A DNA stretch of 64,000 nucleotides. Origin: Sulfurimonas sp. (GTDB lineage Bacteria > Campylobacterota > Campylobacteria > Campylobacterales > Sulfurimonadaceae). Numbering within the stretch: the stretch's first letter is position 1; the number at the start of each line of letters is the position of its first letter. The notes beneath the pieces are model-generated. The model had not been told where the DNA came from. It was given only the letters and a program-made list of their open reading frames with translations, and searched no databases. The DNA lies in contig NZ_CP093397.1 of assembly GCF_029027585.1 (NCBI RefSeq), forward strand, positions 744,001 to 808,000. Direction: 5' to 3'. Both the position numbers and the translations under genes were made by a program. Shown one piece after another: positions 1-64,000 of this stretch.

Positions 1-190
1 TTCTTGAATTCTTTAAAATATTTTGTATATGTGTTGTGTCATCACTACTTGCAACTATAAAAGAAAGTTCTTTTGAATCATAGGCATAAAAAAGATTACA
101 AACACTGATAATATTTCCATCTGTAGATGCAAGACTCAAAACATGATGCTTATCTATAAAATTTATAATTTTTTTTAAATCATCTTCCAT
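1..190 (-). CDS. PNPOx-like (FMN-binding split-barrel) protein, 3' part cut by window edge
   Basis: An open frame starts at the ATG ending at 190 and runs off the left edge, giving about 63 residues. The start reads MEDDLKKIINFIDKHHVLSL, followed by ASTDGN, an NLFYAYD strand and SFIVASSDDTTH. This alternation (helix, 'LAS..DG', 'Y..D...L.F..S..TTH') is typical of the pyridoxamine 5'-phosphate oxidase-like split-barrel fold that binds FMN or haem. It lies five bases after the stop of the 72-aa gene and is probably the last gene of the ovothiol operon. The family call is inferred from the pattern; the substrate is unknown. Confidence 0.6.
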   Translation of the reverse strand, partial: MEDDLKKIINFIDKHHVLSLASTDGNIISVCNLFYAYDSKELSFIVASSDDTTHIQNILKNSR

Positions 191-195
191 AAATA

Positions 196-414
196 CTATT
201 GAAACATGAAGTTTTCTAAACCTTCGGCATCTACGATATCTCTTTTTTCTAACATTAATCTACCCGTTCCATCCGCTTTTAATGTATCATACACATCAGT
301 CGGATTTGACATGTTGTAGTAACTTCTTAAAAAATCTATAAGCATCTCAAAATTATTCTCTTTTATTGCGTGTTGCTTATACTCTTTAAATTCTACCCAG
401 TTTATATTTATCAT
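196..414 (-). CDS. Small hypothetical protein, 72 aa
   Basis: I do not recognise a family. The protein is soluble, acidic and without a signal peptide or membrane segment; it begins MININWVEFKEYKQHA and contains a predicted helix followed by 'YYNMSNPTDVYDTLKADGTGR', then a short acidic tail. It sits 18 bases downstream of the PatB-type lyase gene and 5 bases upstream of the PNPOx-like gene, on the same strand, so it is probably co-transcribed with the ovothiol genes. The tight spacing and a codon pattern like its neighbours support a real gene. Confidence 0.6.
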   Translation of the reverse strand: MININWVEFKEYKQHAIKENNFEMLIDFLRSYYNMSNPTDVYDTLKADGTGRLMLEKRDIVDAEGLENFMFQ

Positions 415-432
415 CTTTATCCCTAAATAAAG

Positions 433-1617
433 TTATTTTTTGTATTTTATCCTAAGTGCTTTGTCTAATCGCTTAATCACTTCTAGCATCTGCGAAGTTG
501 ATACAGCAAAATTAAGCCTCATAAAACCACTTCCTTCTCTACCAAAACTCAGACCTGCATTTAAACCTAATTTGGCTTTTTGAGTAAAAAACTTTCTTAA
601 ATCTCTATCGGATAAGTTCATTCCACGACAATCTAACCATGCCAAATAAGTTGCTTCAATAGGAATCAGTTTTATTTTATCTTTGTATTTTTGACATAGT
701 TCATTTAAACTTTTGTAGTTTTTACCTAGATGCTCTACTAACTCATCTCGCCACTGAGAACCATCTTTATAAGCACTTTGAAATGCCACATGACTAAGAA
801 CACTTCCCTGTGCAAAATGCACACGATTATAACTTTGTGTAAATTTTTCTCTTAACTTTTTGTTTGTAATCGCAACACTACTCATAGCAAAACCAGCCAT
901 ATTAAATGTTTTTCCAACACCAATGGCAGTTATAGTTATATCTCTTGCTTGTTTACTTATAGATGCAAAAGGTATATGTTTGTTTGGAGCATATACTAAG
1001 TCTGAGTGTATTTCATCACTAAAAACAACTATATTATTTTCTAAACAAATCTCTAAAATCTCTGTTAGTTCATCTCTTGACCACACTCTTCCAACAGGAT
1101 TATGAGGTGAGCATAAAAGCAGAAGTTTAGTATTGGCATCTACCTTTGATTTTAAATCATCTATATCAAAGGTGTATCTTCCATCGCTCATCTGTTTTAA
1201 AGGATTTATTAAAAGTTCTCTTTTATGTTCTTTTACACTATGAAAAAATGGCGGATAGATTGGAGTTTGCACGATAACCTTATCGCCAATTTCACTAAAA
1301 GCATCTATGGCAACACTCATAGATGCCACAACAGAATGAGAGTAAAGTAAATCTTCAAGCTCAAACTTTACCCCATGTTTCTCATCCATCCACTTTATTT
1401 GCACTTCAAATGCACTTGTGGGAACTTCTTCATAACCAACTATTGGATGCTTTAACCTCTGCTTAACTGCTTCAAGTACAAACTCTGGTGTATCAATATC
1501 CATATCTGCCACCCAAACAGGCAAGACCTCATCTGAACCAAATAATTTTTCTCTTAAAGTATATTTTTCTGCATTTGAATTTTCTCTAGATGCTGATGAA
1601 GTAAAATCATATTTCAT
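433..1617 (-). CDS. PatB/MalY-type PLP-dependent C-S lyase, candidate OvoB
   Basis: A fold-type I PLP enzyme of the MalY/PatB group, which cleave carbon-sulfur bonds of cystathionine-like substrates. Visible hallmarks are the Asp-Glu pair in FSDEIHSDL, the Schiff-base lysine in GVGKTFNMAG, and the C-terminal Arg in GFMRLNFA. I place the start at 1617 (MKYDFTSSASREN): it overlaps the ovoA stop as ATGA, whereas an in-frame ATG 12 bases upstream adds only MEKK. In ovothiol synthesis, a PLP sulfoxide lyase (OvoB) converts 5-histidylcysteine sulfoxide to 5-thiohistidine. The direct overlap with ovoA makes this gene the obvious OvoB candidate; that role is inferred from context, while the lyase family is seen in sequence. 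Confidence 0.82.
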   Translation of the reverse strand: MKYDFTSSASRENSNAEKYTLREKLFGSDEVLPVWVADMDIDTPEFVLEAVKQRLKHPIVGYEEVPTSAFEVQIKWMDEKHGVKFELEDLLYSHSVVASMSVAIDAFSEIGDKVIVQTPIYPPFFHSVKEHKRELLINPLKQMSDGRYTFDIDDLKSKVDANTKLLLLCSPHNPVGRVWSRDELTEILEICLENNIVVFSDEIHSDLVYAPNKHIPFASISKQARDITITAIGVGKTFNMAGFAMSSVAITNKKLREKFTQSYNRVHFAQGSVLSHVAFQSAYKDGSQWRDELVEHLGKNYKSLNELCQKYKDKIKLIPIEATYLAWLDCRGMNLSDRDLRKFFTQKAKLGLNAGLSFGREGSGFMRLNFAVSTSQMLEVIKRLDKALRIKYKK

Positions 1618-3713
1618 CTTTTTTTCCAAACACTGACTTCAGATATTGTATGTTGGTATTTTCTTTTAGTTTCTTTTATAACAAACTCCAAATCTTGTAA
1701 GTGAATAAGTTCAAACTTTTCTAAAAGTATCTCTTTTAAACTATCTAAGGTTTTAATGTTTTCACCATTAGCATCTATGTATCCTCCAAGCCAAAGCTCT
1801 TTTTTTGTAGAACTTTCTTGCCAAGTATATGGAGATGCTATGATTAAAATGCCATCATCATTTAATCTTTCATCAATACTATCTAAAAAAAGTCTTGGGT
1901 TATAAAGTCTATCTATAAGGTTTGTTGCCATTACCATGTCATAAGAGTTAAAATTAGATTTTAAATTACAAGCATCTCCTTGCCAAAATGAAACTTTTTG
2001 ACTTAGGTTTTCATATCCCAACTCTTTTATTGTAACTTTTTTATTTTCTACTAACTCGCCTTCTTGTTTTGTATGAAAAGCCACAAAACCTTTTTCTTTA
2101 AGCTTTGAGCCAACCTGAATAAAACGAACCGAAAAGTCAATCCCTTCAACCTTATCAAAACTCTTTGCAAGTTCAAACGAAGCTCGTCCTGTTGCACAAC
2201 CCAAATCTAATGCTTTCGTTTTTTTACCCGAAAATTTTGAAGCAATTTTTGCCATCTCAATAGCAAAATTCTTAACTCCAAAATACCCATCGCTGTATTG
2301 AAATTCACAATACTGAGATACAAGTTCATCACTTTCATATATATATTTTTCTTTATACTCTACACTATTTGAAATAACATACCTAAATCCAGAAAATTGA
2401 GGAAAATGTTTTCTAAAAGCATAACGGGAATGCTTCATTATTAAATTTCCACTACTAGCCCATGATGAGCCTAAGATAAGTGCGTGTTTACCATCAAAAG
2501 TAGGAATAGAAAAGTCATCATAAGCTTCATGAATTTCAAAGCCATCAAAGCCAAAGATTGGGGTACGACTCCACTGCCAAACATTTCCAACAACATCATA
2601 GATGCCATTAAAACTAAACTCATTTACAGGACAAGAACTACCATAATGATAAAAGTTTAAGTTTGCTCTACTCTCATGGAATTCTGGTAAATCTTGTAAA
2701 TTTGAACGATTATAAATTGCCATATATTCCGCTTCACTTGGAAGGGAATATGTAACATTATCTACTAAACTTTTATATCTACAAAAAGCATTTGCTTCTA
2801 GTGCATTTACCTCAACTGGAAAATTCATCGGCATCTGAATAACTTTACTCAAAGTTCTATATTTATAAACTCCATTTTCTTTTATCCAAAAAACTGGAAA
2901 TTTAACTTTTGAGCTTTTTAAAAACTCTAAACCTTCTTCATCCCAATACTCATCTTTTTCATAACCTTTTGCATCTACAAACTTCATATACTCTTCATTT
3001 GATACTAAAAACTTTGAAGTCTTAAACTCACCTACTTCTTCTTCATACTCTCCGTACTCATTATCCCAGCCATAAAGATTATGTGCCTTACTTTTACCTA
3101 GTTTTATCTGCTGGGCATCTATGTTTATCATCTCATTTATTGGTGCATCTGCGCTATGAGAACATTCACTAAAGCATTTAACTTCTTTTATACACTCTAG
3201 TGGCATCTGTCTATGAAGAACAAGTGAAGTTTCTATATGGATTCTTTCATGTTCTATGCCCATCAGTATTATCCACATATCACTATCTTGTTTTATAGGG
3301 AGAGTTAAAGGCATACTCATTATCAAATCATTTACAAGCTCTTTTATCTTGCATCTATACTCTCTAACCGCATCGACACTCGGCCAAGCATAGTTTTTAG
3401 CCTCTGTATCATCCCAAGCCATTTCATCAACGCCAACGGCAAATATTGCCTCAAAATCTGCATCTATTCTTTTGTTTATTATCTTCATATTTATTAGTTT
3501 ATTTACAAAAAAAGTTGCTGTATGTCCAAAATAAAATATCATAGGATGACGAGTTAGTTCTGACTTTTTATAAAACACATCATCATTTTTTAAGAGTTCA
3601 AATACTTTTTCGTAAAGATTACAAGTATTGTTAAAATACTCTTTAATTTCTTGTCGTTTTTTTTGTATGTCATTCCCATCTAGCGTTACTGGGTATCTAC
3701 TAAGATTATTCAA
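1614..3713 (-). CDS. ovoA: OvoA, 5-histidylcysteine sulfoxide synthase with fused N-methyltransferase
   Basis: Three domains are visible: an N-terminal DinB-like domain with the iron-binding HX3HXE motif (HERIHIE, near residues 155-161), a central FGE-sulfatase-like domain (PSEAEYMAIY, then GNVWQWS and SGFRY), and a C-terminal SAM methyltransferase (ALDLGCATGRAS). OvoA joins histidine and cysteine with O2 to form the sulfoxide, and the methyltransferase completes ovothiol A. I choose the TTG at 3713: AAAGGA lies six bases upstream and the family-typical stretch (YPVTLDGNDIQKKR) follows at once. A longer frame to 3785 would run into the divergent pgeF gene and its promoter. The product is about 699 aa, full length for an OvoA with the methyltransferase. 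Confidence 0.92.
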   Translation of the reverse strand: MNNLSRYPVTLDGNDIQKKRQEIKEYFNNTCNLYEKVFELLKNDDVFYKKSELTRHPMIFYFGHTATFFVNKLINMKIINKRIDADFEAIFAVGVDEMAWDDTEAKNYAWPSVDAVREYRCKIKELVNDLIMSMPLTLPIKQDSDMWIILMGIEHERIHIETSLVLHRQMPLECIKEVKCFSECSHSADAPINEMINIDAQQIKLGKSKAHNLYGWDNEYGEYEEEVGEFKTSKFLVSNEEYMKFVDAKGYEKDEYWDEEGLEFLKSSKVKFPVFWIKENGVYKYRTLSKVIQMPMNFPVEVNALEANAFCRYKSLVDNVTYSLPSEAEYMAIYNRSNLQDLPEFHESRANLNFYHYGSSCPVNEFSFNGIYDVVGNVWQWSRTPIFGFDGFEIHEAYDDFSIPTFDGKHALILGSSWASSGNLIMKHSRYAFRKHFPQFSGFRYVISNSVEYKEKYIYESDELVSQYCEFQYSDGYFGVKNFAIEMAKIASKFSGKKTKALDLGCATGRASFELAKSFDKVEGIDFSVRFIQVGSKLKEKGFVAFHTKQEGELVENKKVTIKELGYENLSQKVSFWQGDACNLKSNFNSYDMVMATNLIDRLYNPRLFLDSIDERLNDDGILIIASPYTWQESSTKKELWLGGYIDANGENIKTLDSLKEILLEKFELIHLQDLEFVIKETKRKYQHTISEVSVWKKR

Positions 3714-3730
3714 AAATATTCCTTTATATC

Positions 3731-3746
3731 TGCTATAATAATTATA
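3731..3746. promoter_or_regulatory. Overlapping divergent -10 boxes between ovoA and pgeF
   Basis: The 13-bp perfect palindrome TATAATAATTATA (3734-3746) supplies a -10 hexamer to both strands. On the plus strand it is preceded by TGC, giving the extended TGCTATAAT common in Campylobacterota, and it ends six bases before the pgeF ATG. On the minus strand TATAAT (3746-3741) would start transcription near 3734, giving ovoA a leader of about 20 nt holding AAAGGA. One polymerase could serve only one direction at a time. Confidence 0.6.
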
Positions 3747-4471
3747 TGCAATTCTATCATAGTAAAGTATTAAATAATGTATCAAATATCACACATGCTT
3801 TTACAACTAAAGTATCTGGCAATTTAGCCTTTCATGTAAATGACAATCCAAAAGTCGTGCAACTAAATCATACTGTCTTAGCTAAGAAATTAAATTACGA
3901 CAAGAAAACACTTATTCATATGAAACAAATTCACTCAAATATAGTACACCTTGTAGATGTAAAAGATAACTTCGACAACCCTCCAACTTGCGATGCTCTT
4001 ATAACAGATAAACTAAATACACCTTTAATGGTAATGGTTGCTGATTGTTCTCCTTTACTTTTTTTTGATACTAAAAAAAATATTATCGCTGTTGCTCATG
4101 CTGGGAGAGAAGGTACATTTAGTAATATTATTAAGAATGTAATCAACTCTTTTAAAGAAAATTATAATTCAAACGCTCAAGATATAATTGTGTCTATTGG
4201 AGCAAGTATAAAAAAATGCTGTTATGAAGTTGGAGATGAAATATATAAAGAATCTTGTGAACTAAACTTGAACTATGCCATAGAGAAAAAAGATAAAAAT
4301 TACTACTTAAATATTAGTAAAATCTTAAAAACTCAACTCCTAGATGCTGGGGTTAAAGAGCAAAATATTGAAATTTGTAATGAGTGCAGTTGTTGTGAAG
4401 ACAAAAAGTATTTTTCTTATAGAGCAGATAAAAAAAGTGGAAGGTTTTGTGGAGTTATCTTGCTAAAGTAA
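3746..4471 (+). CDS. pgeF: Peptidoglycan editing factor PgeF (YfiH/DUF152, laccase-domain)
   Basis: A 241-aa member of the YfiH family, which removes misincorporated residues from peptidoglycan precursors and has also been described as a purine nucleoside phosphorylase/polyphenol oxidase. Metal-site motifs are present: KQIHSN, VADCSPLLFFD and AVAHAGREG. The usual GWRGT segment reads GREGT here, so the tryptophan is absent. The start at 3746 is the only ATG before the conserved THAFTT segment, and its -10 box ends just six bases upstream, so the mRNA may be leaderless. The 3' end overlaps the convergent dxs gene by nine bases. Confidence 0.85.
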   Translation: MQFYHSKVLNNVSNITHAFTTKVSGNLAFHVNDNPKVVQLNHTVLAKKLNYDKKTLIHMKQIHSNIVHLVDVKDNFDNPPTCDALITDKLNTPLMVMVADCSPLLFFDTKKNIIAVAHAGREGTFSNIIKNVINSFKENYNSNAQDIIVSIGASIKKCCYEVGDEIYKESCELNLNYAIEKKDKNYYLNISKILKTQLLDAGVKEQNIEICNECSCCEDKKYFSYRADKKSGRFCGVILLK

Positions 4472-10908: not shown

Positions 10909-11989
10909 TATTATCTCCATTTACATAACTGCCTAACCATGTAACTTCACTACCATGTTTATCCAGAACTCTTTGTATTCTTTTCTCATCTATATGCCCA
11001 TAAAAATCTATATAAAACCAATATCCAAACCCACTTTTATCTTTAGAGGGACGAGATTCGATTTTTGATAGATTTATATTTTCTTCATCAAAATCTTGTA
11101 AAAAATGCACTAATGCACCAGCTTCTACACCATCTTTTAACCTTACTAAAATCGAAGTTTTGTCATCTTCACTTTTAGCATTTTTAAAATCACTAAGTAT
11201 TACAAATCTTGTACTACTATCATGAGCATCTTCAATATTTTCAAACATTGTTGGCACACCATATAGTTTTGCAGCTATATGACTACAAATCGCTGCAGCA
11301 TCTGGGTCCTCAGATGCTAAAATAGCAGCTTTTGCGGTTGAATCAACAGGAATTTGATCAACATTAACTAAACCATGCTCTGCTAAAAATTCTCTACACT
11401 GTCCAAAACCTTTGTCTTTTGAGTAAATTTTTGTAATTTTTTCTATTGAAGTTGCTTTTGTAACAAACGACATATGAATAGGCATATAAAGTTCTGCTAC
11501 TATTTTTACACTACTTTTTGCTAGTAAATCAAGAGTTTCTCCAACTATACCATCTTTTGAATTTTCTATTGGAACTACACCAAACTTAGCTCTTTTAGCT
11601 TCAAGTGTTTTAAAAACAGAGTAAATTGAACCTAGTGATATATAGTCACTCATAGCACCAAAACGACTCTCTGCCGCTTGATGAGTAAAGGTACCTTCTG
11701 GTCCAAGGTAAGCTATTTTTTCTGGTAATTCCAAGTTTCTTGAAACTGCAAATATTTCTAAAAATATCGCTTCAATAGCATTTCTATTTAAAACGCCTTC
11801 ACTTTCTTTACTTTGTCCTTCTAACCTATCAATGATAGCTTTTTCTCTCTCAGGTCTATAAATGGTTCCACCTGATTCACTCTTAATCTCACCAACTTTA
11901 CCAACAACTTTCATTCTATCATTTAAAAGTTTTAAAATTTCATTATCAATAGCGTCTATTGCAATTCTACAATCATCTAAAGTTTTCAT
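10898..11989 (-). CDS. pheA: PheA, bifunctional chorismate mutase/prephenate dehydratase
   Basis: PheA turns chorismate into prephenate and then phenylpyruvate for phenylalanine synthesis. The 363-aa protein shows an AroQ-type mutase domain (1-85), the dehydratase domain starting at [13 protein letters not shown] (about 94) with the catalytic-region motif [10 protein letters not shown], and a C-terminal ACT domain with SKIESRPSK, where phenylalanine normally exerts feedback inhibition. All three parts are intact. It overlaps the HAD gene upstream by four bases and hisC downstream by eleven. Confidence 0.95.
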
Positions 11990-12781: not shown

Positions 12782-13990
12782 TTAATCTTTTATATAATCT
12801 GTTTCTAAAGCTATCAAATCATCAAAGCTTTCTCTTTTTCGTATAAGCTTTGACTCTCCATCAATAACTGCTACCTCAGCACTACGCCCACGCGTATTAT
12901 AGTTACTACCCATTCCAAAACCATAAGCTCCCGCACTATGAATAACTACTAAGTCATTTCGTTCTAACTCAGGAAGTAGATAATCTTTAGCGAAAAAATC
13001 TCCACTCTCGCAAACTGGACCAACAATATCAACTGCTCTTGGAGCAGAAGTAGAATCTGTAATAGCTTCTATCTTGTGATAAGCACTATATAATGCTGGA
13101 CGAAGAAGATCATTCATAGCTCCATCAACTACTACAAACTTTTTATCGCCATTTTGTTTTTCATAAAGAACTTTTGTTAAAAAGTATCCTGCATTTGCAG
13201 TTAAAAATCTTCCAGGTTCACAGATAACAGTCAAGTCCAGACCTTTAAGAGTTCCCAAAATTGCTTGTACATATTCATAAGGCTCAATAGTGACTTCATC
13301 GTCATACTTAATTCCAAGTCCGCCACCAACATCAAAAAACTTTAGTTTAATATCGATTGTTTCTAATGAACGAACCATATCTGCAACTATAACTGCTGAT
13401 TCATAAATAGGCTCTAGATGCGTGAGCTGTGAACCGATATGGAAGTGAATTCCTACAGGTTCTAAAGACTCAGAATTTTTTGAAAATATATACATTCTTT
13501 TAGCTGTGTCTATCTCTACTCCAAACTTATTGTCGTGAAGTCCTGTTGAAATATATGGATGAGTTTTTGGGTCAATATTTGGATTTACTCTAATGCTTAT
13601 TCGAGAAACTTTACTTAACTCTTTGGCAATAGACTCTACTCGTTTAAGCTCTGCTTCGCTTTCTACATTAATATATAAAATATCTTTTTTTATCGCTTCA
13701 CGAATCTCATCATCACTTTTACCGACACCAGAAAAGATGATTTTATATGCTGGTATACCCGCTAAAAAAGCACGACGCACTTCTCCGATAGAAACACAGT
13801 CAGCACCACTTCCCATTTTTGCAAAATGTTTTACAACACTTAAATTTGAGTTTGCTTTAACTGCGTAAGCCAAGATAGATTTTCTTGCTTTAAATGCATC
13901 TTTTAACTCGTCATATTGTTTACTCATGTAATTAAAATCATAAATATATAATGGAGTTTGATACTTAGATGCCAATTCTTTAAAATTCAT
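12782..13990 (-). CDS. lysA: Diaminopimelate decarboxylase LysA
   Basis: LysA decarboxylates meso-diaminopimelate to lysine, the last step of the pathway. The 402-aa enzyme belongs to the alanine racemase-fold PLP decarboxylases: PLP lysine K45 in AYAVKANSN, the HIGSQL segment, the glycine loop GGGLGIKY, CEPGRFL, and the active-site cysteine in CESGDFF. It is the first gene of the lysA-HAD-pheA-hisC-fliFGH-dxs series. A GGAAATTAT leader lies before the ATG, and TAAAAT (near 14025) about 35 bases upstream is a possible -10. Confidence 0.95.
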   Translation of the reverse strand: MNFKELASKYQTPLYIYDFNYMSKQYDELKDAFKARKSILAYAVKANSNLSVVKHFAKMGSGADCVSIGEVRRAFLAGIPAYKIIFSGVGKSDDEIREAIKKDILYINVESEAELKRVESIAKELSKVSRISIRVNPNIDPKTHPYISTGLHDNKFGVEIDTAKRMYIFSKNSESLEPVGIHFHIGSQLTHLEPIYESAVIVADMVRSLETIDIKLKFFDVGGGLGIKYDDEVTIEPYEYVQAILGTLKGLDLTVICEPGRFLTANAGYFLTKVLYEKQNGDKKFVVVDGAMNDLLRPALYSAYHKIEAITDSTSAPRAVDIVGPVCESGDFFAKDYLLPELERNDLVVIHSAGAYGFGMGSNYNTRGRSAEVAVIDGESKLIRKRESFDDLIALETDYIKD

Positions 13991-16462: not shown

Positions 16463-17650
16463 CTACTTTAAATCAAAAATATCATCACTTTTATCAATCT
16501 CGATATTTCCTTTTTCATCAGAAGATGTATGTTTAGTTGTTTTAGCAGAAGTCAAACCACTCATTCTTAACTCCAAATCAGATGCACTTGTTGCATAATC
16601 TTTGGCTTTTTCTTTTGTGATGATACCTTCTTCATATAGTTCTAAAATATGTTGATCAAAACTTTGTGATTTATAATGCGCTTTCCCTTTTTCAATAGCA
16701 TCTCTAATCTCATAATCTCTATTTTCCATAATAAGTTTTTCTATAGTAGGTGTTCGGACTAAAACTTCCATAGCAGCTCGTCTTCCCCCTTCTATGGTTG
16801 GAATAAGTCTTTGAGAAACTATACCTTGAATTACACCTGCGAGTGACATTCTTACACGATTTTGCTCTTCAGTTGGAAAGGTTGCAATGATACGGTTGAT
16901 AGTTTCTTTAGCATCTATAGTATGCAGAGTTGAGAAGACTAGATGCCCTGTATCTGCCGCATGAAGTGCAAGGTTTATCGTTTCTCTATCACGCATCTCC
17001 CCAACTAAGATTATATCAGGGTCTTCACGAAGAGATGCTCTTAAAGCTGCACCAAAAGAGAGTGTATCTTGACCAACTGAACGCTGATTTATGATGCAAC
17101 CCTTATCTTTGTGAACAAACTCAATAGGGTCTTCAATAGTAATAATATGTTTTCTTTTTGTAAAGTTTATCTCATTTATAAGAGATGCTAGAGTTGTTGA
17201 CTTACCACTACCGGTTACTCCAGTAACAAGCACAAGTCCTCTCTCTTTTTGTGTAAAACTCTTTAAAATATCAGGAAAGTGTAACTCTTCCATCGAAGGT
17301 ATTTTTACAGGAATAACACGAAAGACAGCAGACACTCCATCCATCTGAAAAAAAACATTTACACGAAAACGATTTCTTTCATCAAAAGGATAAACTAAAT
17401 CTATCTCTTTATTTTCTATAAACTCTCCAAATCTTCCCTTTAGCAACTCTTTTGCAAAAGTAAGTGCATCATCTTTAGCAAAAATATCTCCAGCAAATTG
17501 AACAATATTTCCGTTAATTCTTGCACGAATCACAGAATTTGCTTTTATATGAAGGTCACTTCCCCCAAGCTCTATCATCTTTTTTAAATAGGCTCTAACT
17601 TTATTTAATTGTGCAAAGGTTAACTTGCTAACATCTACTTCAGTACTCAT
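16463..17650 (-). CDS. pilT: Type IV pilus retraction ATPase, PilT/PilU family
   Basis: A 395-aa secretion ATPase that powers pilus retraction, needed for twitching and often for DNA uptake. It has the N-terminal PAS-like part (GGSDLHIKANS), Walker A GVTGSGKST (K150), the Asp box DPDIILVGEMRD, and the His box HTIDA with AERVERI-type helices after it. It ends in a charged tail with no known motif (TKHTSSDEKGN). No other pilus gene is in the window. It overlaps the upstream tal gene by four bases. PilU or another retraction paralogue is the alternative. Confidence 0.88.
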   Translation of the reverse strand: MSTEVDVSKLTFAQLNKVRAYLKKMIELGGSDLHIKANSVIRARINGNIVQFAGDIFAKDDALTFAKELLKGRFGEFIENKEIDLVYPFDERNRFRVNVFFQMDGVSAVFRVIPVKIPSMEELHFPDILKSFTQKERGLVLVTGVTGSGKSTTLASLINEINFTKRKHIITIEDPIEFVHKDKGCIINQRSVGQDTLSFGAALRASLREDPDIILVGEMRDRETINLALHAADTGHLVFSTLHTIDAKETINRIIATFPTEEQNRVRMSLAGVIQGIVSQRLIPTIEGGRRAAMEVLVRTPTIEKLIMENRDYEIRDAIEKGKAHYKSQSFDQHILELYEEGIITKEKAKDYATSASDLELRMSGLTSAKTTKHTSSDEKGNIEIDKSDDIFDLK

Positions 17651-18627
17651 AAAGAATCCAAAATCTCACTAAAAGCACCTTTAAAGGACTCTAATCCATT
17701 TTCAATTTGCTTATCAAGAACTGCTTCAAAATCAATACCTGCGTTAATAACTCCATCAAAATACTCTTTAATTACTTGATTTGAGATAGGTAGAGCTTTT
17801 TCTTTTACTCCATCTCTATCAAAAGCCAGTATAGTATCTATTGGAGCTGTATTTATACTGTTAAACGCTAATAGCTTTTCTACATAATACTCTGGAGGTA
17901 ATGAATCACCTTTAACCCCAGTACTTGCAAAAAGTGCTCTACAACCTGTTACATTCATATCTTGTATTGTTGCATAGATATTTGCACTATTATAGATGCC
18001 ACCAAGAGCTTCATCTAAACCTTTTTTTCTTAGTATTGGGTCTATTGCTCTATCAATTCTACTTACAAAAATACTTATAACTGTATCAACTTTTTGTCCA
18101 TGTTTTTTATTGCCTCGCTCAAAAGCTTCAGCGCAAGATATTGCTTGTGATTTTTTAAATACCAAAGTTGCATTTACTGGAATACCCTCACTACTCAAGG
18201 CTTCCATTGCAACATATCCTGCTCTTGTTGCTGGAACTTTAATCATTACATTTTTATAACCTATCTCAGCAAAAAGTCTTTTTCCTTCTTCTATTGTAGC
18301 ATCTGCGTCATCACAAAGAAAAGGGTCAACTTCTATGCTTACATAACCATCATTTCCAACATTATAAAGTATTTGTAAAATACTTGCTGCTTTTTTTATA
18401 TCATAAATTGCAAGTGCTTCATACTTCTCTTTTGGACTTAACTTTTTAAGAGATTTTAGTTGTTCTTTATATGCTGATGAGTTTAAAATAGCATTTTTAA
18501 AAATTGCTGGATTAGAAGTTGCACCATTTATTATGCCTTTTTCTATTAAGTCTTTAAACTCATTGTCCAAATAATCTCTCTCTATAAAATCTGCCCATAA
18601 TGAAAATTTTAAATCTTTAATATACAT
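17647..18627 (-). CDS. tal: Transaldolase
   Basis: Transaldolase moves dihydroxyacetone units between sugar phosphates in the non-oxidative pentose phosphate pathway. The 326-aa protein carries the Schiff-base lysine K130 in NVMIKVPATRAG, the early GATSNPAIF signature and a late ASTGVKGDS. Length and motifs fit the bacterial Tal class with C-terminal extension. It shares an overlapping junction with pilT, which is unlikely to reflect function. The start at 18627 gives the conserved MYIKDLKFSLWAD opening. Confidence 0.93.
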   Translation of the reverse strand: MYIKDLKFSLWADFIERDYLDNEFKDLIEKGIINGATSNPAIFKNAILNSSAYKEQLKSLKKLSPKEKYEALAIYDIKKAASILQILYNVGNDGYVSIEVDPFLCDDADATIEEGKRLFAEIGYKNVMIKVPATRAGYVAMEALSSEGIPVNATLVFKKSQAISCAEAFERGNKKHGQKVDTVISIFVSRIDRAIDPILRKKGLDEALGGIYNSANIYATIQDMNVTGCRALFASTGVKGDSLPPEYYVEKLLAFNSINTAPIDTILAFDRDGVKEKALPISNQVIKEYFDGVINAGIDFEAVLDKQIENGLESFKGAFSEILDSL

Positions 18628-44935: not shown

Positions 44936-45756
44936 ACCGACTCTTTGTTGCAAATAAACCAACAGGGATAAGTTCTAATCATTTTTTATCAAGCCTAAAA
45001 AGAAAATACAAAACAAAAAAAGCTGGATTTACAGGAACTCTGGACCCTTTTGCAAAAGGTGTACTTATAGTTGGCTTTGGCTCTCATACAAAACTTTTCA
45101 GATTTTTAAATAAAACACCAAAAAAATATAGAGCTACTTTATGGTTAGGAGCAAAAAGTGACTCTCTTGATACAGAGAGGATAGAACATGTTGAAATACT
45201 TAAAGAATTTAATCATGCAAAAATACAAGAAGTTGTAGAGTCTTTAAAAGGTGATTTGATATACGAACCTCCTATTTTTAGTGCAAAACGCATAGAGGGA
45301 CAAAGAGCTTATGACTTAGCAAGAGCAGGTAAAAAGTTTACACTTAACAAGATTAACTCTAGCATCTATGAAAGTAAACTCATCAACTATTCACACCCTT
45401 TTGTAACTTTCCAAACAACTGTTTCAGAAGGTACTTATATCCGCTCACTCGGGCTTATTATCGCTAAAAAACTAGGCGTTGAGTATGGAAGTCTTAGTGC
45501 TTTACAAAGACTTAATGAAGGACAATTTACTTACGATGGAGAAAAAGCTCTTGATATAAAAAAATCTCTTAACATTAAACAAAATTTTTATCTAGGAAAT
45601 AGTGATAATTTGAAATATGGAAGAGTTCTTGCTTTAGATGATTTAGATATAAAAAAAGATGGATATTATTGGATAGATAATGGTGATAATATCTCAATCA
45701 TAAACATTCAAAATAACATAGTAAAATATGAACTAAACAAGGTAAGCGTATGTTAG
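44932..45756 (+). CDS. truB: tRNA pseudouridine-55 synthase TruB
   Basis: TruB makes pseudouridine 55 in the T-loop of tRNAs. The 274-aa protein shows [12 protein letters not shown], the catalytic aspartate in [14 protein letters not shown], the [17 protein letters not shown] thumb region and GTYIRSLG. It overlaps uvrD by four bases and csrA by seven. Residues after 240 ([15 protein letters not shown]) form a PUA-like tail of reduced size. Confidence 0.95.
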
Positions 45757-49142: not shown

Positions 49143-52100
49143 TGAAAAAGATTATATTCTTAATCATTGTATGGGTAAACTTATTTTCACAAACTGGAGC
49201 TATTTTAAAACTTGATACAAAAGGTCACACAGGTCTTATAAAAGACATTATTATTTCTAGAGATGAAAGTGAAATCATAACTGCAAGTGATGATAAAACT
49301 ATACGGGTCTGGGATGCTGTGTCTGGAGTAGAAAAAAGAAAGATTTTAGGGCAAATAGGAAGTGGTTCTGAAGGTATGATATTTGCAATGGCACTAAGCC
49401 CTTATGATAAGTATCTTGCCGTTGGTGGTTACTTTGACAACACTCACGCTTCTTCAAACCTTAAACATGGACAAATAAGAATATATGACTATCAAACAGG
49501 TAAAATCATAAAAATATTAAAGTCACACGAAAGTGTTGTTTTTGATTTGGGCTTTTCAAGTGATGGAGAACTGCTTATATCAGGCTCAGATGATGACACA
49601 GCAAAAATTTGGGATGTTTCAAATAATTTTTCACTAAAAGATACAATCACTTTTCACAAAGATGCAGTAAAAGGTGTAAAAATTATAAAAAATGGCAGTT
49701 CTTATTTTGCAATAACATCAGGATATGATTATAAAATAGCTCTGTATGATATACAGGAGCAAGAAATTATAAATAGTATTTCTATTGATAAAAGACTTAA
49801 ATATATCGCTACGACGAACGCTAACGGTGGACATATTGCATTTACTGGAAAAGCTAAAGCTATATATATATATGATTTTGATTTAGAACTAATTAAAGTT
49901 ATAAAAAGCACTAATAAACCTGTAGGACTCGCTTATAGCAAGGATGGTAAATTTCTCATTACAGGCACAGGTAAATCACCAAGAGTGGTAAGAGTATATG
50001 ACGCGAGTAATAATTACACCACAGTAAGCTCATTTAAAAAACACAACAATACAACTATAGCAGTAGCATTTTTAAACAACAAAACTGCTGTAAGTGCTGG
50101 GGGAAACAACAGTGAAATATACATTTGGGATATAAAGACACGAAAAGTAAAAAGAAAAATATCTGGCGTTGGACAAAGAGTTTGGAGTGTTGGTTTAAAA
50201 GGCAATAAAATTGCTTGGGGAACAAAACCTGATATATCAAAAACAAATAAAATGTCTACATTTACAAAATCAATAAATCTAAAAAATTTTAAAATATCAA
50301 AAGATACGAGAAACTTTAAAAGAAATATAACGACAAATGGAAGCTACTCTTTAAAACATATTAAAGGTGGCGATTATGGCTATAACGGTGGAACTTTACA
50401 AATAAGAAAAAATGGCAAAATAAAAAAAACTATAACAAAGAACTCAACAAATGGTTTTAGACATAGATGCTATGGTTGGTATAAAGATTATATCATAAGT
50501 GGTGGAAATAATGGCGACTTACGAGTTTATAATAAGCAGGGTGAAAATGTAGCAACTCTCGTAGGTCACACAAGTACAGTTTGGTCTATATCTATTGATG
50601 GAGATAGACTAGTAAGTGGAAGTGGAGATCAAACAATAAAACTATGGGATTTAAGTAAACTAGATGAGATGAAAGGTTCTTTAGTAAAGTTATCTTGGTT
50701 TAGCACTAAATGGCACAAATGGATATCAAAAAACTACCCAAACTATAAACTCCAAAACGAGAGAGATGTAAGAAGATTCTACAACAAACTTATAGAAAAT
50801 AATGATAATAATAATGCTAAGAAACTAATAGCAAAAACTAAAATCCTAGAACCAATCCTAAATATCTTCGTAAGCAAAGATAACGAATGGGTAGCATGGA
50901 CAAAAAGTGGTTACTTTAACTCCTCAGTAGGTGGAGATAAATATGTAGGTTATCATATAAATCAGGGAGCAAATAAAGAAGCAAGATATGTAGGAAGTGA
51001 TAAATACTTTAATACTCTATATCGTCCAGATATAATCTCTCTTGCTATTCAAACTGGTAGTGAAAAAAAAGCTATCGCTTACGCAAGTAGAACTAAAAAA
51101 GTTAAAACTATAAATATACAAGAATCTCTTCCTCCTGTTATAAGTCTACTTTCTAACTCAAATATAAGAACTAATAAAAAAGCTATAACCATTAAGTTTA
51201 GTGTGGATAGTGACAAACCAATAAAAGATATCATAATCTTACATAATGGTGAACGCCTAAGTAAAAGAGGAATAAAAAGAAAACAAAGTAATAACTATAA
51301 AAGTATAACAATAGAGTTAGATAGTGGAGAAAATATCATAAGCATAAAAGCAAGAAATAAATTTGCTATGAGTGATGAAGTTCTAGTCTATGCAACAAAA
51401 ACCTCAAAAACTAAAAATATATATAAACCAACTCTATATATGTTAAGTATTGGGGTAAGTAAATATAAAAATCCTGAGTATAACTTAGGTGTTGCAGATA
51501 AAGATGCAAAAGCTATGGCTAAAATGTTTAAAAAACAAGAAGGTAAGATATATAAAAAAGTTGTAGTTAAAACTCTTATAAACAAACAAGCTCATAGTGA
51601 TAATATACTTGATGGTCTAGACTGGATAGATAAAGAGGCAACAAGTAAAGATGTTGTTATTATCTTTATAGCAGGGCATGGAGTAAATGATGAAAAAGGT
51701 TCTTACTACTTTTTAAGTCATGATGCAAACTTAGATAAACTAAGAAGAACAGCAGTTAAATGGATAGAGATAGAAGACACAATAAGTAACCTTCCATCTA
51801 AAGTTATACTTCTTGCAGATACTTGTCATAGTGGAAACATTACAGGAACTAGAAGAGATATAACAAGCGCTATTAAGAGTATCATTAATTCTGGTAGTGG
51901 TAGTATTATCATGACAGCTACAACAGGAAGTGGATACTCTTATGAAAAAAAAGAGTGGGGACATGGTGCTTTTACAAAGAGTTTTATAGATGGACTTGAT
52001 AAAATGAAAGCTGATTATGATAATGATGGAACAGTAACTATAAAAGAGATAGATTTATATATTACCACTAGAGTTAAAAAACTCACTAATGGTAAGCAAA

Positions 52101-55570: not shown

Positions 55571-56926
55571 ATGTTTGACTCACTAACAAGTTCATTTACA
55601 GCGGCTATCAGAAAAATTCGTACATTTGATGATGATAAGGCACTAACAAAAGCACTAAATGAGCTTAAAAAATCACTCTTAAAAGCAGATGTAAATCATA
55701 AAGTAGTTAAGCAGTTAATTACTGATGTTCAATCTCAAACAAGAGAAAATGGCATCGGAAAAGACCAGTTCTTAGATGCACTAAGAGCTACACTTTATGA
55801 ACTCTTAGAAGTAGGTGGGAACAAAGGCTTTATCTTTGCTCCAAATCCTCCAACTGTTATACTTATGACAGGACTACAAGGTTCTGGTAAAACGACTACA
55901 ACTGGTAAACTTGCAACTTATTTAAAAAATAGACAAAAAAAGGTTCTTATAGTTGCCGCCGATTTACAGCGTCTAGCAGCAGTTGAACAACTTCGCCAAA
56001 TCACTACTCAAATAGAAGTAGAACTTTTTGAAGATGAAACACTTAAAAATCCAGTTGATGTTGTAAAAGCTGCTCTTAAAAAAGCAAATGATGGCATCTA
56101 TGATGTTGTGCTTATCGATACAGCAGGTCGTTTAGCGGTAGATGATGAACTAATGAATGAGCTTGACGCTGTTAAAAAAGCAGCAAATCCAAGTGAAATA
56201 TTTTATGTTGCTGATTCAATGACTGGTCAAGATGCAGTAAGAACTGCCACAAGCTTTAAAGAAAAAATAGGCATCGATGGCGTAATACTTTCTAAATACG
56301 ATGGAGATGCTAAAGGTGGTGTAGCTCTTGGTCTTTCATCCCAAGTAAGAGTTCCTCTAAGATTTATCGGTAACGGTGAAAAGATGGAAGATTTAGAAGT
56401 ATTTATACCTGAACGAATCGTAAATCGTCTTATGGGCTTTGGTGACATTGAAGGGTTAGCTGAAAAAACTGCAAATATCATAGATGAAAAACAAGCTAAA
56501 AAGCTAACTGCAAAAATCAAAAAAGGTAAGTTTAATTTCAATGACTTTTTACAACAGATGGAAAGTATGAAAAAAATGGGTAGCATGAAGTCTATCATAG
56601 GAATGATGCCAGGTATGGGAAATATGTCAAAAGCTCTTAAAGATTTTGATATGGAAAACTCAAGTGAACTTAAAAATATAAAGTCAATGGTATCTTCTAT
56701 GACAATGAAAGAGAGAGAAAATCCAGACCTACTAAATAACTCTCGTAAACTTAGAATCGCAACAGGTTGTGGTTTAACTCAAGCAGAGATAAACCGTATG
56801 ATTAAACAGTTTAAAAACGCTGGTAAAATGGCTAAAAAGTTTTCAGGCAAAAAAGGCATGCAAGACTTACAAGCGATGATGGGACAAATGGGTGGTCCTG
56901 GAGGAATGGGAGCTATTCCTAGATAA
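55571..56926 (+). CDS. ffh: Signal recognition particle protein Ffh
   Basis: Ffh binds signal sequences and 4.5S RNA and delivers ribosomes to FtsY. The 451-aa protein has the N domain (1-90), the GTPase G domain with P-loop GLQGSGKTTT, DTAGRLA, SKYDGDAKGG and the methionine-rich M domain (about 300-430). Glycine/methionine-rich C-terminus ends GGMGAIPR. In C. jejuni rpsP follows ffh, but here it is 15 kb away on the other strand. Confidence 0.97.
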   Translation: MFDSLTSSFTAAIRKIRTFDDDKALTKALNELKKSLLKADVNHKVVKQLITDVQSQTRENGIGKDQFLDALRATLYELLEVGGNKGFIFAPNPPTVILMTGLQGSGKTTTTGKLATYLKNRQKKVLIVAADLQRLAAVEQLRQITTQIEVELFEDETLKNPVDVVKAALKKANDGIYDVVLIDTAGRLAVDDELMNELDAVKKAANPSEIFYVADSMTGQDAVRTATSFKEKIGIDGVILSKYDGDAKGGVALGLSSQVRVPLRFIGNGEKMEDLEVFIPERIVNRLMGFGDIEGLAEKTANIIDEKQAKKLTAKIKKGKFNFNDFLQQMESMKKMGSMKSIIGMMPGMGNMSKALKDFDMENSSELKNIKSMVSSMTMKERENPDLLNNSRKLRIATGCGLTQAEINRMIKQFKNAGKMAKKFSGKKGMQDLQAMMGQMGGPGGMGAIPR

Positions 56927-61888: not shown

Positions 61889-61894
61889 ATGGAG

Positions 61895-61926
61895 AAAAGA
61901 GTATTTCCATAGACAAATACTCTTTT
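61895..61926. terminator. Bidirectional terminator between zur and pnp
   Basis: Perfect 12-bp arms AAAAGAGTATTT and AAATACTCTTTT surround an eight-base loop. Each strand ends the stem with CTCTTTT, so the hairpin can stop both convergent transcripts. It is placed between the zur stop and the pnp stop. Confidence 0.75.
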
Positions 61927-61935
61927 AAAAAAATT

Positions 61936-64000
61936 CTAAGCACGACCTAAAGAAATTTTATTTCCTTTAAATTCTAATATTTCAACTGTAATTTTTTCAC
62001 CTTCACTTAAAACATCACTTACTTTTTCAACTCTTTTATCAGAAATTTTAGAGATATGAAGAAGTCCATCTGTTCCATCAGGAAGACCTATAAAAGCTCC
62101 AAAATCAACTATCTTTTTAACAGTACCTTCATACTTGTCGCCTACTTGGTATTTGATTTTCTCAATCTTTGGAGCATTAGCGATTCCTTCAATATGCTCT
62201 CTTGCTCCTGAAACACCAGTTTTATTTTTACCAGTAACTTTTACTTTTCCATCTTTTTTATCAATATCTATAGCAACTTCAAACTTTTCTATTATTTCAC
62301 GAATAACTTTACCAGCTTGACCAATAACTTCACCAATCACACTTGGGTCTATATGAAAAAAGTCTGTACTTGGTAAAACTCCGTCATTAAATTCTATCTT
62401 TGACTCAGCATCTATCATTATGTCAATAATATGGCTTCTACCCTCTTTTGCTTGATAAAGTGCTTCTTTTAAAATATCTAAAGAAATTCCACCAAGTTTA
62501 ATATCCATCTGCATTGCAGTGATTCCATCTTTAGAACCTGTCACTTTAAAGTCCATATCTCCATCATGATCTTCAAGTCCCATAATATCCGAAAGAATAG
62601 CATACTTATCACCATCGCTAACCATACCCATAGCAATACCTGCAACAATCTCATTTGTGTCTATATCTGCCGCTTTTAGAGCCATATAACCGCCACAAAC
62701 TGTTGCCATTGAAGATGAACCATTTGATTCTAAAATTTCAGAAACCATACGCACTGTTTGACCATCTAAATCAACTATCGGCTCTAAAGCTCTTTTAGCT
62801 AGATTTCCATGTCCTAACTCTCTTCTTTTCGTACCCAAGATTGGAGAAGCTTCTCCTACACTAAAACCTGGAAAGTTATAATGAACCATAAAGTTTTCAT
62901 TTTGAGTTCCATCGTCAGTAAGGCTTTCAAACATTTGTGCATCTTTTGAATTACCCATAGTTAAAACTACTAAAGCTTGAGTTTGTCCACGAGTGAATAA
63001 ACATGATGAGTGAGCTTTTGGTAAAATATTTGTATCTATGGTTATTGGTCTAATTTCTGTTAAACTTCTTCCATCTGCACGGACTCTTTCATTTAAAATT
63101 TGAGAACGAACTTGCTCTTTTTTTACTTTTTCTATCGCATCTTTAAGTTCTAACTCATCCCACTCATCTTTTACAAGAATAATTTTTTTTCTAAGTTGTC
63201 TAAGTGCAGTTGAACGCTCACTTTTAGCCATTTGATTCATAGCATCTGCAATATCCCCTAGATGCTTATCTCTTAAATATGTAGCCATCTCTTCATTTAG
63301 TGAGTGAGCTTTATAATCAAGTTTTGGTGTTTCTTTTTTGTAAGGTGCGAATGCATTCTCATATTGAGTATTTGTTGCAAAAAGAAGTTCTTGTGTTTTT
63401 TCAAAAATATTTATAAGTTCATCTTCAGCTAATGCATTTGAAGTATGTACTGATATACTTGGCAGACTCATAACTGGGTCTATCATTGGGTCGATTACAA
63501 AGTTATCTTGAATTTGCTCTTCATTTGAAGAAAGTGAACGCATCTCAATCATCAAAAGGTCATCTTTTGTACCAGACAAGTACAAGTCAAGCGTTGAGTT
63601 TTTAAGCTGTGAAAGAGTTGGATTTAAAACTAACTCTCCATCTACTTTTGCTGCACGAACAGCACAAACTGAAGTGTTGATATCTATATCTGAGATATAA
63701 AGAGCAGCAGATGCTGCATTTAATGCTAAGACTTGTAAGTCAGCATCTGAACCTGCACTAAATACCATTATAGTGATTTGAGTTGGATGCCCAAAACCTT
63801 TAGGAAAAAGTGGGCGAAGAGAACGATCAACTATACGAGATGTTAAAGTTTCAAAATCACTCGGTTTTGTTTCTCTCTTGAAAAATCCTCCTGGAATCTT
63901 TCCAGCTGCATATGTTTTTTCAATATACTGAACTGTTAAAGGTAAAAAATCTTCTTTTACTATCTCTGTTTCATTTATAACAATTGTTGCTAAAATAACA
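61936..64000 (-). CDS. pnp: Polyribonucleotide nucleotidyltransferase Pnp, 5' end beyond the window
   Basis: PNPase degrades RNA 3' to 5' by phosphorolysis. The frame is open to the right edge: IVINETEIVKEDFLPLTVQY, then YAAGKIPGGFFKRE, SRIVDRSLRPLFP, and on through MVFSAGSDAD. The second RNase PH repeat (RADGRSLTEIRPI, SSCLFTRGQTQALV), a KH domain (VIGQAGKVIREI) and an S1 domain (YEGTVKKIVDFGAFIG) follow. About 688 residues are visible; only the first 30 or so codons are missing. An internal ATG at 63768 is not the start. Confidence 0.95.
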   Translation of the reverse strand, partial: VILATIVINETEIVKEDFLPLTVQYIEKTYAAGKIPGGFFKRETKPSDFETLTSRIVDRSLRPLFPKGFGHPTQITIMVFSAGSDADLQVLALNAASAALYISDIDINTSVCAVRAAKVDGELVLNPTLSQLKNSTLDLYLSGTKDDLLMIEMRSLSSNEEQIQDNFVIDPMIDPVMSLPSISVHTSNALAEDELINIFEKTQELLFATNTQYENAFAPYKKETPKLDYKAHSLNEEMATYLRDKHLGDIADAMNQMAKSERSTALRQLRKKIILVKDEWDELELKDAIEKVKKEQVRSQILNERVRADGRSLTEIRPITIDTNILPKAHSSCLFTRGQTQALVVLTMGNSKDAQMFESLTDDGTQNENFMVHYNFPGFSVGEASPILGTKRRELGHGNLAKRALEPIVDLDGQTVRMVSEILESNGSSSMATVCGGYMALKAADIDTNEIVAGIAMGMVSDGDKYAILSDIMGLEDHDGDMDFKVTGSKDGITAMQMDIKLGGISLDILKEALYQAKEGRSHIIDIMIDAESKIEFNDGVLPSTDFFHIDPSVIGEVIGQAGKVIREIIEKFEVAIDIDKKDGKVKVTGKNKTGVSGAREHIEGIANAPKIEKIKYQVGDKYEGTVKKIVDFGAFIGLPDGTDGLLHISKISDKRVEKVSDVLSEGEKITVEILEFKGNKISLGRA

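What the first reader, a model, noticed from the sequence alone, without database searches (positions are those of the whole stretch)
1..64000. Window-wide, over-represented motif GCATCT(A) on both strands: a candidate uptake or genome-signature sequence
The hexamer GCATCT or its complement AGATGC appears far more often than base composition allows. By hand I count 22 copies in 1-4470, 17 in 16463-22186 and 16 in 42887-48535. Assuming about one-third G+C, roughly 1.5 copies would be expected in 4.5 kb. In the first segment 15 of 22 are GCATCTA, and none is GCATCTT. Both orientations occur, inside genes on either strand and in different frames, so it is not one amino-acid pair. In Gly-Ile-Tyr or Ser-Ile-Tyr contexts it uses GGC, AGC and ATC codons that are otherwise uncommon here. 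DNA uptake sequences of Neisseria and Pasteurellaceae look like this, and a pilT gene is present. No such motif is known to me in this phylum.
Basis: partly seen in the sequence, partly recalled or inferred. Interest (0 to 1): 0.72.

Follow-up and report, generated by a model that had tools for sequence, protein, structure and literature searches.

The report
Genome-wide GCATCT motif in Sulfurimonas
A short DNA word, GCATCT, is scattered thousands of times on both strands of this sulfur bacterium's genome, is kept in place in some of its relatives and is hardly raised in others, and may be a tag by which the cells recognise their own kind's DNA, though that function is unproven.

Summary
The window lies in a 2.607-Mb Sulfurimonas contig. 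GCATCTA occurs 2,428 times there (1,221 forward, 1,207 reverse); read backwards, 165 times. A codon-preserving shuffle does not remove it: in 1.08 Mb of genes GCATCT occurs 2,301 times against about 1,019, first of 2,089 hexamers. It is also first in intergenic DNA. All six frames are enriched. The flanks give a fuller consensus, TRGCATCTRNG, about 10-fold enriched. Replication-strand bias is slight, 47:53. The trait is patchy: 7 of 60 Sulfurimonas genomes carry 390 or more GCATCTA per Mb; the median is 199. Sites are conserved in three motif-rich relatives (44 of 98, 56 of 122, 39 of 81; background 0.22-0.27) but not in a motif-poor one (12 of 74; 0.15). Preferred flanks differ between lineages. 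Competence and pilin genes are present, but in motif-poor relatives too. Best reading: an uptake-sequence-like motif spread by biased transformation (0.40). The enrichment is far weaker than in classical DUS/USS. A methylation-linked origin is the main rival.

The parts
1..64000 (.). 127 copies of the core GCATCT/AGATGC on both strands; 64 are RGCATCTR and 22 are RGCATCTRNG
   Evidence: codon-shuffle expectation in the window's 55 called genes 46.2 against 116 observed
484..494 (+). copy of the extended consensus TRGCATCTRNG
1318..1328 (-). copy of the extended consensus TRGCATCTRNG
1769..1779 (+). copy of the extended consensus TRGCATCTRNG
2597..2607 (-). copy of the extended consensus TRGCATCTRNG
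11309..11319 (-). copy of the extended consensus TRGCATCTRNG
13964..13974 (-). copy of the extended consensus TRGCATCTRNG
18297..18307 (+). copy of the extended consensus TRGCATCTRNG
45360..45370 (+). copy of the extended consensus TRGCATCTRNG
50462..50472 (-). copy of the extended consensus TRGCATCTRNG
56092..56102 (+). copy of the extended consensus TRGCATCTRNG
16463..17650 (-).
   Evidence: translation; relatives

Best explanation
GCATCT, in fuller form about T-R-GCATCT-R-N-G, is most likely an uptake-sequence-like motif. A surface or periplasmic component of the type IV pilus/ComEC transformation machinery would bind or import DNA carrying it more efficiently. Imported kin DNA recombines into the chromosome, so motif copies that arise by mutation are spread and kept at every position that tolerates them, on both strands. 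Different lineages would have slightly different receptor preferences, seen as flank dialects. Shown here: enrichment, a sharp core within genes, strand symmetry, six-frame spread, patchy distribution, excess conservation between motif-rich relatives, flank dialects, and presence of ComEC and pilin-like proteins. Inferred: that uptake bias is the force, that the organism is competent, and which protein is the receptor.
For: Genome-wide and strand-symmetric: 1,221 and 1,207 GCATCTA. Not codon-driven: 2,301 against 1,019, first of 2,089 hexamers; every frame enriched 1.9-9.4-fold, and 2.4-15-fold for RGCATCTR. First-ranked hexamer in intergenic DNA. Sharp within genes: the 18 single-base neighbours of GCATCT lie at 0.21-1.46 times expectation against 2.26 for the word itself, and flank preference fades beyond about two bases upstream and four downstream of the core. 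Of about 2,000 hexamers it is the one most raised, by z score, against a pool of three motif-poor relatives in each of three comparisons. Sites are kept in three motif-rich relatives at nearly twice the background and not in a motif-poor one of similar divergence. Flank dialects. ComEC in 24 of 24 and prepilin-type signals in 20 of 20 genomes tested. Phylum precedent: C. jejuni takes up only DNA methylated at the 6-bp site RAATTY (PMC10046745, passages). One polysaccharide island has no RGCATCTR where about 6.8 would be expected at the genome rate (P = 0.0011).
Against: Enrichment is modest: 2.3-fold for the core, about 10-16-fold for the full consensus, against 82-92-fold drops at one mismatch in known DUS/USS (another null). 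Ordinary words such as AACTCT reach 1.86 in the same test, and GCATCT itself is 1.17-1.38 in motif-poor genomes. In intergenic DNA two neighbours are raised as well, TCATCT 2.14 and CCATCT 1.93 against 3.27, and the density is lower there, 1.29 against 2.15 per kb. No ComP-family protein over the cut-off in 24 genomes. Competence genes do not separate motif-rich from motif-poor genomes. A conserved minor pilin that could bind DNA is in both groups and has only a weak partial match in motif-rich G037. Inverted pairs of the 7-mer are few: 17 within about 40 bp in 1.25 Mb, 3 of them intergenic, whereas inverted pairs are common for DUS/USS (PMC12616744). A conjugative element shows normal enrichment (O/E 2.52). 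The low polysaccharide island is 1 of 61 loci, so it is marginal after correction. Natural transformation of this species is untested here.
Confidence: 0.4

Rival explanations
1. Methylation-linked iterated motif. A DNA methyltransferase of the D12 class (N6-adenine, often at GAT-containing sites; recalled) modifies GATGC/GCATC, and methylation-dependent repair or methylation-dependent uptake, as with HIP1 in cyanobacteria or CtsM/RAATTY in C. jejuni, drives the word to high frequency.
For: Full-length PF02086 matches in a narrow score band (E 1e-29 to 1e-39) occur in 6 of 7 motif-rich and 2 of 53 other genomes of the 60-genome Sulfurimonas draw (Fisher P 4e-6). With the wider band that I had written down (1e-28 to 1e-42) G055 joins them: 3 of 53 (P 1.1e-5). 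Adding the 8 further Sulfurimonas: 7 of 8 against 3 of 60. In G000, G025, G026 and G292 two such domains lie close together or are fused. HIP-type motifs go with matching methyltransferases (PMC4390886, abstract and passages).
Against: The band was chosen, and related genomes are not independent. G058 (81% complete) and G085 are motif-rich without it; G001, G018 and G055 have it without the motif. My written prediction for fresh genomes outside the genus failed: G175 has no match, G199 only E 7e-4, G064 a Dam-strength match, G212 1.8e-26. Outside the genus the band holds 1 of 3 motif-rich and 21 of 231 other genomes by best match (P 0.26). Specificity is unknown: I could not read the genes. 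GCATCA is depleted and GCATCC not raised, so the driven word is longer than GCATC.
Confidence: 0.25
2. A binding site for a chromosome-maintenance protein (nucleoid organiser, recombination or segregation factor) selected throughout the genome.
For: Present in all 61 stretches read (0.55-4.06 copies per kb); site conservation.
Against: Chi- or KOPS-like sites are expected to be polar to replication (recalled); here 1,185 leading and 1,357 lagging (the small lagging bias has P 0.0007). No candidate protein identified.
Confidence: 0.15
3. Context-dependent mutation, for example a repair bias that turns a near neighbour into GCATCT.
For: TGATGC/GCATCA is depleted in G000, G025 and G015 (0.49-0.55) and somewhat in G085, G176 and G058 (0.76-0.84), and a mutational process would also act on conjugative elements.
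Against: The depletion of GCATCA does not track the enrichment: G037 1.18, G292 1.20 and G008 1.18 are motif-rich. A bias on one step would not readily create the extended flank consensus.
Confidence: 0.1
4. By-product of codon context or of restriction-site avoidance: GATC is depleted to 0.24 and ACGT to 0.04 of expectation in G000, so codons are displaced into GAT-GC.
For: GATC is depleted in all 9 motif-rich genomes sampled (0.24-0.69). Another word, CTCTTTT, is 1.6-2.6-fold over the codon shuffle in each genome or pool computed, motif-rich or not (12 genomes).
Against: Displacement would raise all NGATGC words alike, but in G000 AGATGC is 2.26 and TGATGC 0.54. GATC is also depleted in motif-poor G009 (0.52) and G011 (0.70). 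Intergenic DNA shows the motif, and all six frames are enriched.
Confidence: 0.06

Closest known systems
Neisseriaceae DUS and Pasteurellaceae USS
   Same: Short non-palindromic motif, about one to two copies per kb on both strands, inside genes, with lineage-specific dialects around a fixed core.
   Different: Shorter core and much weaker enrichment; few inverted pairs; no ComP-family receptor over the cut-off; no uptake experiment.
Campylobacter jejuni methylated RAATTY uptake site (CtsM)
   Same: Same phylum; short site; C. [quoted passage not shown]
   Different: RAATTY is its own complement in IUPAC letters; here the site is asymmetric and no methylation has been measured.
Highly iterated palindromes (HIP1) of cyanobacteria
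   Same: Genome-wide over-represented short word, patchy between relatives, with a possible link to methyltransferases.
   Different: HIPs are palindromic and tied to methyltransferases of matching specificity; GCATCT is not palindromic, and the methyltransferase link was not reproduced outside the genus.
Chi sites and KOPS
   Same: Short over-represented words, non-palindromic (recalled).
   Different: Those are expected to be oriented with replication (recalled); GCATCT is 47:53.

Membership tests
DUS/USS uptake sequences | Hundreds to thousands of copies, both orientations | tested here: met
   2,428 GCATCTA, 1,221 and 1,207
DUS/USS uptake sequences | Enrichment not explained by codon usage | tested here: met
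   2,301 against 1,019, rank 1 of 2,089; six frames
DUS/USS uptake sequences | 9-12 bp word with a fall of tens of fold at one mismatch | tested here: not met
   Core 2.26-fold against 0.21-1.46 for neighbours; 11-mer consensus about 10-fold; published falls of 82-92-fold by a base-composition null
DUS/USS uptake sequences | Frequent inverted pairs acting as terminators | tested here: not met
   17 close inverted pairs of the 7-mer in 1.25 Mb, 3 intergenic
DUS/USS uptake sequences | Dialects that follow phylogeny | tested here: inconclusive
   A/G before the core in G000 and G058, T in G085+G176 and G015, mixed in G025, G037 and G292; no genome-scale tree made
DUS/USS uptake sequences | ComEC channel and type IV pilins | tested here: met
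   PF03772 24 of 24; PF07963 20 of 20; both sets include motif-poor genomes
DUS/USS uptake sequences | ComP (Neisseriaceae) receptor family | tested here: not met
   PF16732 over the cut-off in 0 of 24; three weak matches below it. The ComN/PpdA family was not tested
DUS/USS uptake sequences | Motif rare in recently acquired DNA | tested here: inconclusive
   Polysaccharide island O/E 1.20, conjugative element 2.52
DUS/USS uptake sequences | Motif raises DNA uptake | not testable with these tools
   Needs a transformation assay
HIP-type iterated motifs | Palindromic word | tested here: not met
   GCATCT is not its own complement; flank consensus is asymmetric
HIP-type iterated motifs | Methyltransferase of matching specificity in motif-rich genomes | tested here: inconclusive
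   6 of 7 against 2 (or 3, wider band) of 53 in the genus; 1 of 3 against 21 of 231 outside it; specificity unknown
Chi/KOPS | Strong orientation bias with replication | tested here: not met
   1,185 leading and 1,357 lagging
C. jejuni-type methylated uptake site | Methylation of the motif required for uptake | not testable with these tools
   No methylation data

The most novel reading that the evidence does not exclude
A previously undescribed self-DNA recognition system in Sulfurimonas. A clade-specific asymmetric motif, TRGCATCTRNG, with flank dialects, is read by the pilus/ComEC machinery, possibly only when methylated by a paired D12 methyltransferase. It would have arisen repeatedly within Campylobacterota, independently of DUS and USS.
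Probability: 0.33. Interest if true: 0.82.

Novelty: new variant of a known kind. Interest (0 to 1): 0.62.

Why it matters
Named uptake sequences are described in two families, Neisseriaceae and Pasteurellaceae (PMC12616744, passages), and how such biases begin is an open question. A weaker, short, patchy motif that varies between close relatives would be an early or different stage of that process, in a phylum where the one uptake rule I found in print is methylation-based. If instead it is methylation- or repair-driven, it would be a HIP-like phenomenon outside cyanobacteria. Either way the genus holds motif-rich and motif-poor relatives side by side, which makes the cause testable.

Tried and rejected
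Maximum-order Markov expectation (127 against 94 in the window): too strict, because it uses the motif's own parts. Set aside as the null in favour of codon shuffles and low-order Markov models.

Codon or amino-acid cause: rejected. Chi/KOPS polarity: rejected. GATC or ACGT avoidance as the cause: rejected.

ComEC, pilins or PilT as the difference between motif-rich and motif-poor genomes: present in both groups. ComP family: none over the cut-off. FimT-like minor pilin (C1:519 kb): full-length matches in both groups, no residue pattern that separates them by eye; 3 of 23 rows (G292, G040, G011) were lost in my extraction and are not in the alignment. PDB sequence matches of that pilin are nearly all to pilins and begin at the N-terminal helix.

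D12 methyltransferases: associated within the genus; the written prediction failed outside it. On checking I found that the band as written also takes in motif-poor G055, which I had not counted there; both counts are given, and the odds of that rival are left as they were.

CRISPR spacers as a route to phages of this host: no array found in the sampled 48% of the genome; one repeat hit (L042) not followed up. A phage search with a host gene found nothing and tests nothing.

Even spacing: spacing is slightly more clustered than random (CV 1.16), so regular spacing is not supported. Per-gene dispersion was not used, because my floor on small expectations biases it.
Full report
WHERE IT IS. The window is G000:C1:744001-808000 of a single 2,607,188-base contig. 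Its PilT-like protein is 92% identical to that of Sulfurimonas sp. GH10, 89% to OB8 and 83% to STCSWMC_194, so the organism is a Sulfurimonas (Campylobacterota). By place and contig length G025 is OB8, G037 is STCSWMC_194 and motif-poor G030 is the MAG M17_metabat2_scaf2bin.059.

THE OBSERVATION. The window holds 127 GCATCT/AGATGC and 73 GCATCTA/TAGATGC. Genome-wide, GCATCTA occurs 1,221 times forward and 1,207 reverse; the control, the word read backwards, occurs 84 and 81 times. I then read 1,248,188 bases of the genome, the window included. Over this sample GCATCT occurs 2,542 times, against 392 from base composition and 780 from a second-order Markov model, the highest z score of all hexamers seen 30 times or more.

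IS IT CODON USAGE? No. Permuting synonymous codons within each of 1,083 called genes gives 1,011 +/- 21 copies (50 shuffles), against 2,301 seen. Ranked against all words, GCATCT is first of 2,089 hexamers, and words inside, containing or overlapping the core lead at 5 to 9 bases. Ordinary words can also exceed this null: AACTCT is 1.86. Enrichment of GCATCT by position in the codon is 2.27, 9.43 and 4.61 on the sense strand and 2.15, 3.07 and 1.87 on the antisense. In intergenic DNA without the window's rRNA block it is again the first hexamer by z, 218 against 67 by a second-order model (3.27-fold), though TCATCT (2.14) and CCATCT (1.93) are raised too. Density is 2.15 per kb in genes and 1.29 between them. 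Gene calls are mine (longest ORFs of 100 aa or more; 90 aa or more for the relatives).

WHAT THE MOTIF IS. Within genes the 18 one-base neighbours of GCATCT lie between 0.21 and 1.46 times expectation, against 2.26 for the word. Preferences outside the core fade beyond about two bases upstream and four downstream. Successive flanks raise the ratio: RGCATCT 2.84, RGCATCTR 3.52, RGCATCTRNG 7.5 (272 against 36), TRGCATCTRNG 9.8 (158 against 16), TGGCATCTRNG 16 (54 against 3.3); YGCATCTY is only 1.4. The word is found in every stretch, with slightly more clustering than chance (CV of spacing 1.16) and a replication orientation of 1,185 leading to 1,357 lagging, a small but significant bias (P 0.0007).

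RELATIVES. Among 60 Sulfurimonas genomes the median is 199 GCATCTA per Mb; seven have 390 or more: G058 955, G000 931, G037 836, G008 697, G025 612, G015 550, G026 394; then G002 310. G292 (572) came with a wider draw of 248 genomes of the order, in which G085 (471) and G176 (429) of family f7 and G175 (400) of family f6 also stand out. The 390 line is mine and was drawn after seeing the counts. Codon-shuffle ratios on sampled DNA are 2.23 to 2.59 with rank 1 in G000, G025, G037 and G058; 1.87 to 2.36 with rank 3 to 7 in G292, G085, G176, G015 and G008 (18 to 160 kb of genes each); and 1.17 to 1.38 with rank 115 to 422 in G030, G011, G009 and G002. G026 and G175 were not sampled. Against three motif-poor genomes pooled, GCATCT is by z score the most raised hexamer in G000, in G025+G037+G058, and in G292+G085+G176+G015; GATC-containing words are the most lowered or among them. 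In a PilT tree the window, GH10, OB8 and STCSWMC_194, all motif-rich, form one supported group of four rows (99/95); ZodW_Metabat.179, also motif-rich, lies far off beside a motif-poor row. Densities on that tree come from single loci of 3.7 to 21 kb, and one gene's tree cannot settle how often the trait arose.

CONSERVATION. Over aligned orthologous genes, own GCATCT sites are identical in 44 of 98 cases in G025 (background for words with three G/C: 0.256), 56 of 122 in G037 (0.221) and 39 of 81 in G058 (0.269); in motif-poor G030, of nearly the same divergence as G037 (72 and 74% nucleotide identity), 12 of 74 (0.151), and in G011 4 of 19 (0.138) (binomial P 3e-5, 5e-9, 4e-5, 0.44 and 0.26). 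In G025, G037 and G058, 26 of 452, 12 of 472 and 14 of 400 words still have higher raw conservation than GCATCT. The sites are thus kept, or regained, where the motif is in force.

DIALECTS. Ratios for the base before the core: G000 A 2.7, G 3.6, T 1.65; G058 A 2.95, G 3.1, T 2.0; G037 A 2.7, G 3.3, T 2.3; G025 A 1.8, G 3.2, T 2.7; G085+G176 T 2.8, A 1.3; G015 T 2.5, A 1.2, G 0.8; G292 T 2.2, A 1.7, G 2.6, C 2.2. RGCATCTR is 3.4 to 3.7 in G000, G037 and G058, 2.2 in G025, and 1.1 to 1.8 in G015, G085+G176 and G292. Samples are small outside G000.

MECHANISM. ComEC (PF03772) is in 24 of 24 genomes tested, rich and poor, and prepilin signals (PF07963) in 20 of 20. G000 has five pilin-like genes with E below 0.01, two of them within 10 kb of comEC. 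One minor pilin at C1:519 kb carries a conserved FDxxGRP stretch reminiscent of FimT (recalled; no call shows it is FimT; Pfam gives only the N-terminal signal, below its cut-off). Full-length matches are in rich and poor genomes, but only a weak partial match in G037. ComP (PF16732) gives nothing over the cut-off in 24 genomes. So the machinery is there but does not explain the difference. The 20-kb locus richest in polysaccharide genes (L051) has 11 GCATCT against 9.2 by codon shuffle and no RGCATCTR where the genome rate predicts about 6.8 (P 0.0011, one of 61 loci); a conjugative element (L019) has the normal ratio, 2.52. That is one result for and one against an uptake tag that marks native DNA.

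THE METHYLTRANSFERASE LEAD. PF02086 matches of E 1e-29 to 1e-39 occur in G000 (two, C1:928443 and 932584), G025, G026, G037, G015, G008 and G292; in G000, G025, G026 and G292 two lie close together or are fused. In the 60-genome draw this is 6 of 7 motif-rich and 2 of 53 others, or 3 of 53 with the wider band that I wrote down (G055 at 3.3e-42, overlooked in that note). With the 8 further Sulfurimonas it is 7 of 8 against 3 of 60. I wrote a prediction for genomes outside the genus before looking. It failed: of four fresh genomes G175 has no match, G199 is marginal (7e-4), G064 is of Dam strength, and G212 is 1.8e-26, just outside. Outside the genus 1 of 3 motif-rich and 21 of 231 other genomes have their best match in the band. 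I could not read the genes. The lead stands only inside the genus, with few independent lineages.

LITERATURE. Passages read: published DUS and USS fall 82- to 92-fold at the first mismatch, by a base-composition null, and H. influenzae has 1,471 copies (PMC1939737); DUS/USS are often inverted pairs and are described in two families with dialects (PMC12616744; PMC3630211); C. jejuni imports only DNA methylated at RAATTY (PMC10046745); HIPs go with matching methyltransferases (PMC4390886); a survey of spaced motifs mentions for Campylobacter and Helicobacter only Shine-Dalgarno patterns in the passages I saw (PMC5217627). Searches of the held library for an uptake motif in Campylobacterota or Sulfurimonas showed none in the listings (lists are capped); two papers holding both 'gcatct' and 'sulfurimonas' were seen as listings only.

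VERDICT. A real, discrete, maintained DNA motif restricted to some lineages. Its best reading is an uptake-sequence-like signal of a weaker kind than DUS/USS; a methylation-linked origin is the main rival. Function is unproven.

Noticed in passing
own genome sample and relatives: ACGT is almost absent in G000 (0.04 of codon-shuffle expectation), G085 (0.02), G176 (0 copies), G058 (0.02) and G008 (0.05), but not in G025 (0.54) or G015 (0.68): patchy restriction-site avoidance. GATC is also low in G000 (0.24).
   Followed up: partly
own genome sample: GGTGGAG, GTGGTGG and GGTGTTG are over-represented and lie about 2:1 on the leading strand (171:89, 123:57, 201:99): candidates for Chi- or KOPS-like sites, not separated from gene-strand effects.
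   Followed up: no
12 genomes in 9 sets: CTCTTTT/AAAAGAG is 1.6-2.6-fold over the codon shuffle in every set computed, motif-rich or not; a word without explanation.
   Followed up: no
G000, G025, G015: TGATGC/GCATCA is depleted to 0.49-0.55 in these three, mildly in G085, G176 and G058 (0.76-0.84), and not in motif-rich G037, G292 and G008 (1.18-1.20).
   Followed up: partly
window 4463-6284, minus strand: A 1-deoxy-xylulose-5-phosphate synthase-like gene (name recalled) is split into two overlapping ORFs in different frames; a frameshift or an assembly error in a normally essential gene.
   Followed up: no
L027 4187-6667 (G000 C1:867-870 kb): A DnaB-like helicase carries a long insertion at its ATP-binding loop that looks like an intein (recalled; from the translation).
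   Followed up: no
L027 15292-16884 (G000 C1:878-880 kb): A transposase-like gene sits between two pilin genes near comEC.
   Followed up: no
L019 (G000 C1:430-450 kb) and L051 (C1:1895-1915 kb): A conjugative type IV secretion island and a 20-kb surface-polysaccharide cluster (read by me from the translations).
   Followed up: partly
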